From the IMG/VR virus record IMGVR_UViG_3300032156_000003, positions 22,330 to 86,329 of that record: a stretch of 64,000 bases of DNA; one strand, written 5' to 3'. The DNA comes from a virus. A program made the position numbers and the translations under genes. This document shows positions 35,726 to 62,912 of the stretch, in pieces. The notes under the pieces were generated by a model. The model ran no database searches, had not been told where the DNA came from, and worked only from the letters and a program-made list of their open reading frames with translations. Position 1 is the first letter of the stretch; each line of letters opens with the position of its first letter.

Positions 35726-35754
35726 TTGACACGCGCAATGAGAGGCGCTATATA
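35726..35754 (+). promoter_or_regulatory. Strong promoter, TTGACA-17-TATATA
   Basis: TTGACA (35726-35731) and TATATA (35749-35754) are 17 bp apart, with an upstream A-tract near 35685. The box GCGCTATATATAG is shared exactly with the promoter at 60892. It drives the gene at 35789. Confidence 0.75.
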
Positions 35755-46911: not shown

Positions 46912-47401
46912 GAAATTCCGCACCTTAATGAACAGACTTGTCGACAGTTTCGAGGACGTCATGGACGATGAAGAGTTGACGCCAGATGAACAGAAGGTGG
47001 CGAAACTGACGCAGGAGCACATGCTCGCGGCCTACTACGAATGGCAGCGGGCTCACACAATCCGAAAACTCACTGAAGAGTGCGACCGTCTTCGCGCCGA
47101 GAACGCCGAACTCCGCACCTCTCTCACAGGCTGGGTTACGTCGCACTCGCCGGGGCCGATGCTGGAAGGAATCACGTTGACAGACGCAATCAGTGCGAGA
47201 TGGGTGAACTCGGACGGGACACCCTACGTTATCGATATGGGCGAGGTGCCCACGCCGTTCACACTTGTCGAGACGACGAACCGAATCTGTCGTGATTGCT
47301 GTCACTCGAAAAGAGCGGCCGTCCCAAAGTGCGACAAGGGTTTTAAGCTAGGAAGTGCGACAACTTGCGAAAGCTACGAGGAAGGCACGCCAACCCCGTG
47401 A
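46901..47401 (+). CDS. Coiled-coil plus zinc-finger protein
   Basis: The 166-residue protein (RBS gacgggaggaacc) has a heptad region (HTIRKLTEECDRLRAENAEL) at about residues 50-75 and a Cys-rich C-terminus (ICRDCCHSKR, KCDKG, TTCESY). The second part looks like a zinc knuckle. Function unknown. It lies directly before the RHH-like gene and the csf operon. Confidence 0.5.
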   Translation: MDAEKFRTLMNRLVDSFEDVMDDEELTPDEQKVAKLTQEHMLAAYYEWQRAHTIRKLTEECDRLRAENAELRTSLTGWVTSHSPGPMLEGITLTDAISARWVNSDGTPYVIDMGEVPTPFTLVETTNRICRDCCHSKRAAVPKCDKGFKLGSATTCESYEEGTPTP

Positions 47402-56937: not shown

Positions 56938-57765
56938 TTACGGGTTGAGCATACCGACCAACTCTTCGATGCTCCACACGTGATCCGCGACTCCCGCTTC
57001 CATGACCGGGGTGACGCGCAGGGTCTTGTGAATCCGGCAGAAGTTGTAGTGCATGAAGTGGAGCGCGACGGCCGCGATGTGGTTCTCCACCTTCTTGCTG
57101 AAAGCGTTGGTCAACCGCGTGAACCGCCGCATGCTCATCCGCATCGTGAGGTTCTGGCGCTCTACGTAGCTCGTGGAGATGTGTTTGGGGTCGGGGTTGC
57201 CGGTTACCACGTCGGTCTCCGTCCCGGTGCACACGGGCGGGCTATAGCGCTTCTCGCCGTTGGGGTCCGTGCCGTACAGCTTTATGAGCACCGCGTAGTC
57301 AATCTCGGAACCGAACGCGCCTTCGACAGCCTGAAGGTACGGCTTGTGACCGTCGCTCGTGAGCTGCACGCGCTTCGCAAGGCGGGAGGCCAAGTCCGAG
57401 ATGAACTGCGCGGCGTCTTCGGCGTTCCTACCGCCGACGTGCCAAGAGGGAACCAACTTCGTGTCCGCGTCGATAGCCGTCCAGGTCCAGACGTCGCCGA
57501 TGCCCTTCTCACCCCTCATGTTCGCGGGGATGTTCTTCTGCTTGGCGTAGACGAAGGACCAGATCTCGTCGACCTGGACGCGCTCGCAAGGCAGTTTGAC
57601 GAGCGTTTTGTGCTGGTAGGCATCGCAGGCCGCGCCGAGGTCTAGGAGCAACTTGATGACGGTGTTGATCGCGGTGTCGGTCATGCGGGCCGTGGCACGG
57701 AGGCTGTTTCCCTCGACCAGCGCCGCGACGATCCGAACCTGCTTCTCTTTTGTGATCCTGTTCAT
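56938..57765 (-). CDS. IS1-type transposase
   Basis: On the minus strand the 275-residue protein has an N-terminal helix-turn-helix (RIVAALVEGNSLRATARMT), and the DDE residues D66 (VQVDEIW), D138 (TSDGH) and E202 (YVERQN) with correct spacing for the IS1-like family annotated in many genomes. It catalyses transposon movement. I could not define terminal inverted repeats, so an element boundary is not shown. It may have brought in the flanking toxin-antitoxin genes. Confidence 0.8.
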   Translation of the reverse strand: MNRITKEKQVRIVAALVEGNSLRATARMTDTAINTVIKLLLDLGAACDAYQHKTLVKLPCERVQVDEIWSFVYAKQKNIPANMRGEKGIGDVWTWTAIDADTKLVPSWHVGGRNAEDAAQFISDLASRLAKRVQLTSDGHKPYLQAVEGAFGSEIDYAVLIKLYGTDPNGEKRYSPPVCTGTETDVVTGNPDPKHISTSYVERQNLTMRMSMRRFTRLTNAFSKKVENHIAAVALHFMHYNFCRIHKTLRVTPVMEAGVADHVWSIEELVGMLNP

Positions 57766-57871: not shown

Positions 57872-59032
57872 ATGGTCATGAAGAACACCACCTCCACTAC
57901 TACAGAATTTCGAACTCCAGGGCAGTACATTGAAAAACTATTGCGCGAACGTGGATGGACCCAGCGCGTGCTGGCAATAGTGCTGGAACACGACGAAACC
58001 GGCCTCAATAAAATTGTAGCCGGGAAGAGACCAGTGGCGGCTGGCTTGGCCATCGCCCTTGGAGAAGTGTTTGGAGTTGCTCCAGAGATGTTTTTGGAAC
58101 TTCAAAAATCATACGATTTGGCTCAGGCCAGAATTGTGGAACGACCGGACCCTGGGCGCACAACCCGAGCGCATCTTTTTGGAGATCTTCCAGTCGCTGA
58201 GATGATTAAGCGTCGATGGCTAGACGCAGAAAGTATGCGCGATGTGGCAATGGTTGAGGCTTCATTAATAAAGTTTTTTGGTGTGAATTCGACGGATGAA
58301 ATAGAAGTCCTCCCACATGCCGCGAAAAAGACTTGCGTTACCGGCCAAGTGACACCGCCTCAACTGGCATGGCTATATCGCGTCAAGGAAATTGCTGGGG
58401 AGATGATCGTCGGCAGGTATTCGGCGAATGGAATGCGAACGGCAGTAACAAAATTGAGTGCGCTTCTGGCATCGGCAGAAGAGGCCAGAAAGGTCCCCCG
58501 CATACTGGCAGAGTCGGGTGTCCGATATGTGATTGTCGAGTCATTGCCAGGAGCAAAGATTGACGGTGTTGCATTCTGGTTGAATGATTCTTCACCCGTC
58601 ATCGGCATGACCATGAGATATGATCGTCTCGATAATTTCTGGTTTGTTCTTCGACACGAATTAGAACATATTTTACGTTTGCATGGTCATTCTTCTGTAA
58701 TGTTAGATTCGGAGCTTGAAGGAGAACGCGCCGGACTTGGAGAGAGCATTTCCGAAGAGGAACGAGAGGCCAACGTGGCCGCCGCAGAGTTTTGTGTTCC
58801 ACAGCGGCAACTTGAAAAATTCATAGCGCGAAAAAGTCCATTGTTTTCCGAGAGAGATATTCTCGGCTTTGCGAACACACTGCAAATCCATCCTGGTCTT
58901 GTTGCAGGACAGTTGCAGCACAAGACCGGACGGTACGACCGTTTCAAGAATCATCAAGTGAAAGTGCGATCTATCGTTGCCCCTGGCGCGATGGTCGATG
59001 GGTGGGGTGATGTTGCCCCTGTTGGAATGTAA
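57872..59032 (+). CDS. XRE regulator with ImmA/IrrE metallopeptidase domain
   Basis: The 386-residue protein (start 57872, or 57878 after AAGGA) has an N-terminal XRE HTH at about residues 16-66 (YIEKLLRERGWTQRVLAIVL) and a C-terminal zinc peptidase domain with HELEH (262-266) in FVLRHELEHILRLHGH. This fusion is found in HigA-type antitoxins and in ImmA regulators that cut repressors of mobile elements. Its DNA is less GC-rich than average, so recent transfer is likely. The adjacent gene may be its partner. Confidence 0.75.
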   Translation: MVMKNTTSTTTEFRTPGQYIEKLLRERGWTQRVLAIVLEHDETGLNKIVAGKRPVAAGLAIALGEVFGVAPEMFLELQKSYDLAQARIVERPDPGRTTRAHLFGDLPVAEMIKRRWLDAESMRDVAMVEASLIKFFGVNSTDEIEVLPHAAKKTCVTGQVTPPQLAWLYRVKEIAGEMIVGRYSANGMRTAVTKLSALLASAEEARKVPRILAESGVRYVIVESLPGAKIDGVAFWLNDSSPVIGMTMRYDRLDNFWFVLRHELEHILRLHGHSSVMLDSELEGERAGLGESISEEEREANVAAAEFCVPQRQLEKFIARKSPLFSERDILGFANTLQIHPGLVAGQLQHKTGRYDRFKNHQVKVRSIVAPGAMVDGWGDVAPVGM

Positions 59033-60891: not shown

Positions 60892-60920
60892 TTGACAATG
60901 GCAACGACATGCGCTATATA
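60892..60920 (+). promoter_or_regulatory. Strong promoter, TTGACA-17-TATATA
   Basis: TTGACA (60892-60897) and TATATA (60915-60920) are 17 bp apart, with an A-tract near 60863. GCGCTATATATAG is the same as in the promoter at 35726. It lies in the 164-bp gap between 60792 and 60957, which holds no gene. Confidence 0.75.
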
Positions 60921-60956
60921 TAGGGTATGGGACGCAGCACACAGGAGGGACGGGAG

Positions 60957-61370: not shown

Positions 61371-61649
61371 ATGTTAAGTCACACGATAATGACGCACAAC
61401 AACGGATACGACATGATTTTGTTGGTCAACGATGACGACGACGTGGTCAGCGCGTGGGAGGCTACGGACGAGGTGATGCGCAATTACACTACCGATACCG
61501 ACGCCGACCTGTGGGAGACGGGAGTCGGGTCGGATGGACTCGACGACGACGGTTGCCCGACCATGTTTTACGCGATCTCCGACTACGGAGATGAGGTTGG
61601 GCGTGACGGCGAGATGACAGTCGAGCGCCGAGCATTTTGGTTTCGATAG
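61371..61649 (+). CDS. Small acidic protein of unknown function
   Basis: The 92-residue protein is rich in Asp/Glu (VNDDDDVVSAWEATDE) and has no known motif. An aaaaggggga RBS precedes it. It shares the transcript that leads into the hammerhead motif. Highly acidic phage proteins sometimes mimic DNA, but there is no proof here. Confidence 0.45.
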   Translation: MLSHTIMTHNNGYDMILLVNDDDDVVSAWEATDEVMRNYTTDTDADLWETGVGSDGLDDDGCPTMFYAISDYGDEVGRDGEMTVERRAFWFR

Positions 61650-61651
61650 AA

Positions 61652-61705
61652 GCCGAAACCGCCTACGGGCGGTCGGCGCGGCTGGCTACCGCGCCCTGAT
61701 GAGGC
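61652..61705 (+). ncRNA. Type II hammerhead ribozyme
   Basis: The stretch holds all core parts in order: GCC (61652-61654), GAAA (61655-61658), stem III ACCGCC/GGCGGT with a UACG tetraloop (61658-61673), cleavage base C61674, stem I GGCGCGG/CCGCGCC with a 7-nt loop (61675-61695), CTGATGA (61696-61702) and GGC (61703-61705), which pairs with GCC to form stem II. All 13 conserved core bases match. Cleavage would leave a 5'-OH end 50 nt upstream of the receiver gene. Confidence 0.82.
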
Positions 61706-61724
61706 AGCCAAGGAGGAGGGGAAC

Positions 61725-62132
61725 ATGGAACGCATAATGATGATCGATGACAGTAACGTAGAACTCAAATGGACCGTCGCGGCTCTACGTCCCTACGGGA
61801 TCGACGTCCTCGCGTGCAACAGGGCTCTCGGCGTACAGGCTCTCGCGGCGCAGCACATGCCCGCGCTCATCCTCCTCGACGTCAATATGCCCGCGCTCAC
61901 GGGAGATGTGCTCTGTAAGTTCTTGCGCACCAATCCTGCGACAGCTGACATCCCCGTGCTGCTCTACTCCGACATGCCCGCGGGCGAGTTGAGAGTGCTG
62001 GTCGAGCGCTGCGGTGCAGACGGCTACATCGAAAAAAATCATAACGCGCAGTTTCTGGCACTTCGGGTGCATAGTGAGTTGGCGAACTCCAGTGAGGCGC
62101 GCGTGAAAGACCTGGTTGGGGGTGTGCGGTGA
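61725..62132 (+). CDS. CheY-like response-regulator receiver domain, stand-alone
   Basis: The 135-residue protein has the receiver residues: acidic pair D8 D9, phosphoacceptor D52 in ILLDVNMP, S82 in LLYSD and K104. No output domain is present, as in CheY. It has a strong AAGGAGGAGGGG RBS downstream of the hammerhead motif. Phage receiver proteins are unusual; it may divert a host kinase signal or control transcription by contact. No histidine kinase is in the window. Confidence 0.78.
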   Translation: MERIMMIDDSNVELKWTVAALRPYGIDVLACNRALGVQALAAQHMPALILLDVNMPALTGDVLCKFLRTNPATADIPVLLYSDMPAGELRVLVERCGADGYIEKNHNAQFLALRVHSELANSSEARVKDLVGGVR

Positions 62133-62417: not shown

Positions 62418-62786
62418 ATGGACTACCCAAATCCGATGGTGCGCGAGACACGGATTAGAAATATGGTCCACAATCGGCACCTGTCCAAAAGCATCATGGA
62501 CGCGGGCTGGGGTTATCTGCGACAAAGGCTTGAAGTCAAAGCGGTAGAAGCTGGGCGTCAAGTCATCGCAGTTGAACCGGCGTACACGTCCAAGTCATGC
62601 TCCGATTGTGGAACCGTTTTCGAGGATCTGAAATTGAGCGACAGGTGGGTACGTTGTGATTGCGGTCTATCACTGGATCGCGACCACAACGCTGCCTTGA
62701 ACATTCTTAGGAGGGGACACCTCCTTCGGGAGTCAACGTGGGCTGCTAGAGGGCCGAGCGTATCCCGAGAAGCCGCTGGGTTTTAA
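62418..62786 (+). pseudogene. TnpB (IS200/IS605 OrfB) C-terminal fragment
   Basis: The 122-residue product, from ATG 62418 with an aaaaaggag RBS, starts near the RuvC-II region (RNMVHNRHLSKSIMDAGWGY) and has the zinc finger C61-x2-C64 and C80-x-C82, and the RuvC-III block LDRDHNAALNIL (D87/D89). The N-terminal part with RuvC-I is missing, so it is a relic and cannot be a nuclease by itself. Its strong start site shows that it may still be translated. A right-end-like hairpin follows at 62773. Confidence 0.72.
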
Positions 62787-62795
62787 CCCATGCGG
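62773..62795 (+). mobile_element. IS200/IS605-type right-end hairpin
   Basis: CCGC (62773-62776) pairs with GCGG (62792-62795), enclosing TGGGTT/AACCCA (62777-62782, 62785-62790). The TnpB stop lies inside it. Such a hairpin ends IS605-type elements and omega RNAs. Only the right end is seen; the left end and TnpA are absent. Confidence 0.5.
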
Positions 62796-62912
62796 AGTGT
62801 CACGGAGTTCTCGCGCGGGAAGTTCGAGACGCAGGGGCAGGCGGCGCAATACTACTGCGCCAATGTCAACGGATTGCACGCGGCGGGGTGGGTCACCCTG
62901 TCGTTCGCGTAG
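62790..62912 (+). CDS. 40-residue peptide
   Basis: ATG 62790 opens a 40-residue frame (KFETQGQAAQYYCANVNGLH) that ends before the next start. The start is inside the right-end hairpin of the TnpB relic and has no clear RBS. It may be a decayed fragment or a native short gene. Confidence 0.3.
   Translation: MRSVTEFSRGKFETQGQAAQYYCANVNGLHAAGWVTLSFA

What the first reader, a model, noticed from the sequence alone, without database searches (positions are those of the whole stretch)
61652..61705. Complete type II hammerhead ribozyme between two phage genes
All conserved core bases (CTGATGA, GAAA, the U-C cleavage step) occur in the right circular order for type II, with perfect stems I (7 bp) and III (6 bp, UACG tetraloop) and a short 3-bp stem II. 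The chance of this set is very small. Cleavage after C61674 would cut the transcript between the acidic protein and the receiver gene, separating the mRNA and setting the 5' end of the receiver transcript. Hammerheads are known in some phage genomes but their purpose is unclear.
Basis: partly seen in the sequence, partly recalled or inferred. Interest (0 to 1): 0.9.

Follow-up and report, generated by a model that had tools for sequence, protein, structure and literature searches.

The report
Self-cutting RNA between two phage genes
Between two genes of an uncultured virus of bacteria lies a genuine self-cutting RNA (a type II hammerhead ribozyme) of a kind already known from phages; what is new is that such ribozymes tend to fill the gap from one gene's stop codon to the next gene's ribosome-binding site whatever the genes are, and that a classic laboratory phage of Streptomyces carries nine of them, unannotated, so their unknown purpose can be tested.

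Summary
A related 93.5-kb phage has the same ribozyme at the same place (two compensatory stem I changes, none in the core) while the genes on both sides are unrelated and the receiver gene is absent. The element is therefore selected as a ribozyme and is not specific to the receiver gene. In 182 non-redundant relatives the upstream stop codon usually touches or overlaps the ribozyme (69% end within 8 nt of GAAA; 3.6% at random positions). The next start codon follows about 25 nt later, and the neighbouring genes share no family. Most likely it is a gene-independent cut site. It would leave the stop codon and a hairpin on the upstream mRNA, and a 5'-OH hairpin plus the ribosome-binding site on the downstream mRNA. 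Cleavage was not tested. Type II hammerheads between prophage genes, with this pseudoknot, have been known since 2011, so this is a new member of a known kind. Streptomyces phage R4 carries nine.

The parts
61651..61713 (+). Type II hammerhead ribozyme, full Rfam match
   Evidence: RF02276, 54.9 bits, cut-off 37, E 1.5e-8
61647..61649 (+). Stop codon TAG of the upstream 92-aa gene, 2 nt before stem II
   Evidence: sequence and ORF list
61652..61654 (+). Stem II, 5' strand (GCC)
   Evidence: sequence, Rfam alignment
61655..61658 (+). Conserved core GAAA (last A pairs in stem III)
   Evidence: sequence, Rfam alignment
61658..61673 (+). Stem III hairpin, 6 bp with UACG loop; would be the 3' end of the upstream RNA
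   Evidence: sequence, folds
61674..61675 (+). Predicted cleavage site C61674^G61675
   Evidence: Rfam alignment; cleavage itself not tested
61675..61695 (+). Stem I hairpin, 7 bp; would be the 5' end of the downstream RNA
   Evidence: sequence, folds, two compensatory changes in the relative
61683..61687 (+). Loop I half of the pseudoknot (UGGCU)
   Evidence: descriptor output; pseudoknot defined in PMC3088659
61696..61702 (+). Conserved core CUGAUGA
   Evidence: sequence, Rfam alignment
61703..61705 (+). Stem II, 3' strand (GGC)
   Evidence: sequence, Rfam alignment
61706..61710 (+). Tail half of the pseudoknot (AGCCA)
   Evidence: descriptor output
61711..61716 (+). Shine-Dalgarno sequence AGGAGG of the receiver gene, directly after the pseudoknot tail
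   Evidence: sequence
61371..61649 (+). Upstream gene, 92 aa, acidic, no family match; replaced by an unrelated gene in the relative
61725..62132 (+). Downstream gene, 135-aa response-regulator receiver domain; absent from the relative
   Evidence: PF00072, E 8.3e-12
60892..60920 (+). Promoter-like site TTGACA-17-TATATA upstream of the operon, in a stretch 82% identical in the relative
   Evidence: pattern scan, 2 in the window against 0.01 expected; blastn

Best explanation
It is a complete type II hammerhead ribozyme that acts as a gene-independent intercistronic cut site in a phage accessory operon. RNA starting upstream (probably near 60927) runs through the 92-aa gene, the ribozyme and the receiver gene. 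The RNA folds, with stems I and II held together by the loop I-tail pseudoknot, and cuts itself after C61674. Because the cut lies between the stop codon and the Shine-Dalgarno sequence, neither reading frame is broken. The upstream mRNA keeps its stop codon and ends in the stem III hairpin with a 2',3'-cyclic phosphate. The downstream mRNA starts with a 5'-OH on the base-paired stem I hairpin, followed within about 50 nt by its start codon. The likely benefit is that linked genes become separate mRNAs with blocked ends that decay and are translated independently, whichever genes sit there. Shown here: sequence, fold, conservation, position, independence from gene identity. Inferred: that it cleaves, the end chemistry (general hammerhead knowledge), and the effect on stability and translation.
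For: Full-length Rfam match with intact core. Syntenic ribozyme in a relative, 7 of 59 positions changed, none in the core, four of them forming two compensatory pairs in stem I, while both flanking genes are unrelated. Pseudoknot of at least 4 bp in 153 of 198 elements against about 57 with shuffled tails. Stop codon end 0-8 nt before GAAA in 69% of 182 elements against 3.6% of random positions, start codons peaking 19-30 nt after stem II; depositors' gene calls agree. 169 downstream proteins form 149 clusters and 180 upstream proteins 162 clusters. All 32 loci with several ribozymes have them on one strand. Published: type II hammerheads between prophage genes, cleavage of a native array in E. 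coli (PMC3088659).
Against: No cleavage or RNA data for this phage. Ignoring the pseudoknot, another hairpin is 0.7 kcal/mol better in the window sequence. Four of 18 consensus hammerheads tested in PMC3088659 showed no activity. RNase E can cut RNAs lacking a 5' monophosphate (PMC2948425), and the host and its nucleases are unknown, so the stability benefit is a conjecture. This phage has a single ribozyme, so only one pair of cistrons is separated.
Confidence: 0.7

Rival explanations
1. Translation-gated regulator. The stop codon touches stem II and the tail touches the Shine-Dalgarno sequence, so a terminating ribosome upstream or a 30S subunit on the downstream site would prevent folding. 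Cleavage would then report on ribosome traffic and adjust the ratio of the two proteins.
For: Contact with the stop codon and the fixed distance to the start codon; pseudoknot tail directly before the Shine-Dalgarno sequence here.
Against: The same geometry is expected if phages simply keep gaps short while leaving the ribozyme untranslated; no data on ribosome dependence.
Confidence: 0.18
2. Recombination joint: the conserved ribozyme sequence is a homology block at which accessory genes are exchanged.
For: Gene replacement on both sides in the relative; nearly identical ribozymes with unrelated neighbours, e.g. L128, L132, L149, L223; first count 30 of 70 ribozyme junctions against 20 of 129 others.
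Against: That count was inflated by alignments breaking inside ribozyme stems; for true homology ends it is 11 of 57 against 18 of 105, odds ratio 1.16, p 0.83. The sample is small.
Confidence: 0.05
3. Dedicated control of the receiver gene by its own leader ribozyme.
For: The ribozyme lies directly upstream of the receiver gene's ribosome-binding site; the receiver keeps the usual acidic, phospho-acceptor, Ser and Lys positions (read).
Against: The relative keeps the ribozyme and lacks the receiver; ribozyme-linked genes share no family.
Confidence: 0.04
4. Chance match or inactive relic.
For: No experiment; a competing fold exists.
Against: E 1.5e-8 over the window; conserved with compensatory changes between phages whose flanking genes have been replaced; 0 hits in reversed sequence.
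Confidence: 0.03

Closest known systems
Type II hammerhead ribozymes of bacteria and prophages (Rfam RF02276; Perreault et al. 2011, PMC3088659)
   Same: Core, open stem II, closed stems I and III, loop I-tail pseudoknot, place between small phage genes of changing identity.
   Different: Nothing in the ribozyme itself. Added here: the ribozyme conserved while both neighbours are replaced, and the measured distances to stop and start codons.
Hammerhead arrays of Streptomyces R4-like phages (found here)
   Same: RF02276 members between small accessory genes; the R4 member at 47096-47160 is 81% identical over 62 nt to this one.
   Different: 9 copies in R4, up to 12 in Paedore, all on one strand; cultured phages; ribozymes not annotated in the stretches read. 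This phage has a single copy.
HHphage hammerhead of haloviruses HF1/HF2 (described in PMC3088659)
   Same: Hammerhead 13 nt upstream of a phage gene's start codon, with a mapped transcript 5' end within three nucleotides of the cleavage site.
   Different: Core variant in archaeal viruses, at the first gene of an operon; here the core is standard and the site is inside the operon.
Theta ribozymes of gut phages (PMC10879173)
   Same: Small self-cleaving ribozymes used by phages to process their own transcripts.
   Different: HDV-like fold, next to tRNAs; no tRNA here.

Membership tests
Type II hammerhead ribozyme (RF02276) | Score above the curated Rfam cut-off over the full model | tested here: met
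   54.9 bits against 37, positions 1-66 of 66
Type II hammerhead ribozyme (RF02276) | Conserved core CUGANGA, GAAA and a UH cleavage step | tested here: met
   CUGAUGA 61696-61702, GAAA 61655-61658, UC 61673-61674
Type II hammerhead ribozyme (RF02276) | Circular order with stem II open and stems I and III closed by loops | tested here: met
   sequence order and folds
Type II hammerhead ribozyme (RF02276) | Stem pairing maintained by compensatory change | tested here: met
   two double changes in stem I against the relative
Type II hammerhead ribozyme (RF02276) | Loop I-tail pseudoknot (common, not universal) | tested here: met
   UGGCU/AGCCA, 5 bp; 5 bp with one wobble in the relative; group statistics
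Type II hammerhead ribozyme (RF02276) | Self-cleavage at the predicted site | not testable with these tools
   needs an in vitro or RNA-end experiment
Theta (HDV-like) ribozyme | HDV-like double pseudoknot next to a tRNA 3' end | tested here: not met
   No HDV-like Rfam hit above its cut-off, no tRNA

The most novel reading that the evidence does not exclude
Phage type II hammerheads are standard stop-to-RBS linkers whose exact contact with the stop codon and the ribosome-binding site makes ribosome occupancy and self-cleavage mutually exclusive, so that translation decides whether neighbouring genes stay on one mRNA or are cut apart.
Probability: 0.18. Interest if true: 0.75.

Novelty: new member of a known kind. 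Interest (0 to 1): 0.45.

Why it matters
The purpose of bacterial and phage hammerheads is described as an open question (PMC6155905). This case and its relative show the ribozyme outlasting the genes on both sides, which points to a gene-independent role in mRNA processing. The survey adds a positional rule that can be tested (stop codon at stem II, start codon about 25 nt downstream), and it finds arrays of 9-12 ribozymes in cultured Streptomyces phages, including R4 of S. coelicolor, where mRNA ends and mutants can be studied directly.

Tried and rejected
1) Receiver-specific control: rejected because the relative keeps the ribozyme without the receiver. 2) Recombination joint: a first enrichment vanished when alignment breaks inside ribozyme stems were excluded. 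3) Competing hairpin as a conserved off-switch: found in the window sequence but not in the relative, whose computed fold is the hammerhead itself. 4) Close relatives through the receiver protein: none in the viral contigs; no DNA match of the region and no match of the 217-aa protein in annotated phages; the large terminase found the useful relative. 5) The bare 14-base pattern gave mostly chance hits, and the GCGAAAC...GGCAGCC pattern gave none. 7) A link to aminoglycosides was followed only to the statement that they bind a hammerhead (PMC9239200) and was dropped.

Full report
WHAT IS THERE. The window is bases 22330-86329 of an 86,329-base virus record with terminase, portal, head and baseplate genes, so it comes from a tailed phage. 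Its host is unknown. Rfam scores 61651-61713 (+) as Hammerhead_II at 54.9 bits, cut-off 37, over the full model, and nothing else in the window reaches a family cut-off. In addition loop I (UGGCU 61683-61687) can pair with the tail AGCCA 61706-61710, the pseudoknot that Perreault et al. (PMC3088659) showed by mutation to be needed for fast cleavage in a type II hammerhead.

CHANCE. A strict descriptor (exact CTGATGA and GAAA, stem III at least 5 bp, stem I at least 4 bp, stem II at least 2 bp) finds 224 elements in the fetched loci and none in the same sequences reversed. These loci were mostly fetched for such motifs, so 224 is not a frequency; the zero is the point. Among 198 different sequences, 153 have a loop I-tail complementarity of at least 4 bp, against about 57 when tails are shuffled between members.

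THE RELATIVE. The terminase led to a 93,507-base phage contig with 88% identical terminase. It has one hammerhead at the corresponding place. The two ribozymes differ at 7 of 59 positions: one in the stem III loop, one in loop I, one in the tail (the pseudoknot pair U-A becomes U-G), and four in stem I that form two double changes (G61676-C61694 to C-G, G61678-C61692 to A-U), none in the core. Around it, blastn finds no homology between the flanking genes, although the outer anchors are 82-89% identical: the 217-aa gene, the promoter-like region, the 60-aa gene and the DUF3560 gene. The upstream 92-aa protein, the receiver and the proteins in their places have no significant similarity, and the receiver has no match in that record. 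In the relative the upstream stop codon TGA ends directly at stem II and the next start codon is 21 nt after it.

THE WIDER SET. In 182 non-redundant elements the end of the upstream stop codon lies 0-8 nt before GAAA in 69%, against 3.6% for random positions. The commonest cases are a stop codon whose last base is the first base of stem II (47) and one directly abutting it (35), and only one lies closer. Start codons with a Shine-Dalgarno match peak 19-30 nt after stem II. Limits: reading frames were called by a simple script, the viral set was selected by a motif that fixes part of the ribozyme but not the stop codon or the start codon, and the smaller bacterial-genome set shows the stop-codon contact less clearly. 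Annotated phages give an independent check with the depositors' gene calls: CDS starts 10-35 nt after stem II in 43 of 54, CDS ends at most 20 nt before it in 41 of 55 and at most 5 nt in 23; several of these phages are close relatives of each other. Neighbouring proteins fall into nearly as many clusters as there are proteins. All 32 loci with several ribozymes carry them on one strand.

CULTURED PHAGES. A search with short hammerhead queries found type II hammerheads in annotated phages, mainly Streptomyces phages. Rfam finds 9 in R4, 10 in Sentinel, 9 in Omar, 12 in Paedore and 10 in Caelum (some below the cut-off in Sentinel, Paedore and Caelum; all 9 above it in R4), and one, just under the cut-off, in Faecalibacterium phage FP_Mushu. 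None is annotated as a ribozyme in the stretches read; some are covered by short predicted genes, such as R4 gp75.1 and Caelum gp79. A literature search for hammerhead together with Streptomyces phage returned one unrelated paper; most subscription papers and preprints are not held, so this is not proof of novelty.

HOW IT MOST LIKELY WORKS. In a type II hammerhead each cleavage product carries a complete hairpin at the new end: stem III on the upstream RNA, stem I on the downstream RNA (folds). Perreault et al. saw in-line probing consistent with the pseudoknot in the longer strand alone, so the downstream RNA may keep it at its 5' end. The cut falls after the stop codon and before the Shine-Dalgarno sequence, so both frames stay intact. 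The most economical reading is an intercistronic processing site that turns linked accessory genes into separate, end-blocked mRNAs. PMC3088659 already proposed processing of long phage transcripts and saw cleavage in E. coli for an Agrobacterium array; PMC6155905 calls the role of prokaryotic hammerheads open. The stability argument is weaker: 5'-OH ends lack the monophosphate that RNases E, J and Y prefer (PMC7509114), but RNase E can also enter directly (PMC2948425), and the host is unknown.

ALTERNATIVES. Translation gating is not excluded: a ribosome at the stop codon would probably cover stem II and GAAA, and a 30S subunit would crowd the tail (inference from general ribosome footprints). 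Recombination-joint function was tested and not supported (correcting). Receiver-specific control is contradicted by the relative. The computed minimum-energy fold of the window RNA slightly favours another hairpin when the pseudoknot is ignored (-30.3 against -29.6 kcal/mol); the relative does not share it, so it is probably incidental, but it could slow cleavage here.

VERDICT. Observation confirmed; a new member of a known kind with a well-supported position rule. Interest is moderate for this locus and higher for the test system it points to.

Noticed in passing
window 62420-62786 and 62790-62912; L262 4455-4691: A TnpB C-terminal fragment (Cas12f1-like TNB domain) interrupts a small gene that is a whole 78-aa reading frame in the relative: its start (MDYPNPMVRET) and its end (FSRGKFET...) lie on either side.
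   Followed up: partly
L275 (R4), L276, L277, L282-L285: Cultured Streptomyces phages carry 9-12 type II hammerheads each in their accessory region, not annotated in the stretches read and partly covered by short predicted genes such as R4 gp75.1 and Caelum gp79.
   Followed up: partly
window 35726-35754 and 60892-60920: Two near-identical promoter-like sites TTGACA-17-TATATA; 0.01 expected in shuffled sequence. The second lies upstream of the ribozyme operon and is conserved in the relative.
   Followed up: partly
L128, L132, L149, L223: Ribozymes identical or nearly so over 60 nt in different viral contigs with unrelated genes on both sides; how they came to be shared is not explained.
   Followed up: partly
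base before stem II (61651 in the window): This base is A in 144 of 182 elements, often as part of the upstream stop codon, but also in 50 of 85 without a stop codon there; it may have a structural role.
   Followed up: no
window 61725-62132: The phage receiver domain keeps Asp8, Asp9, Asp52, Ser82 and Lys104, the usual positions of a working receiver, with no output domain (sequence, PF00072).
   Followed up: no
window 56938-57765: An IS1-like transposase reading frame on the minus strand (named from its sequence only), next to an HTH and M78-peptidase gene at 57872-59032.
   Followed up: no
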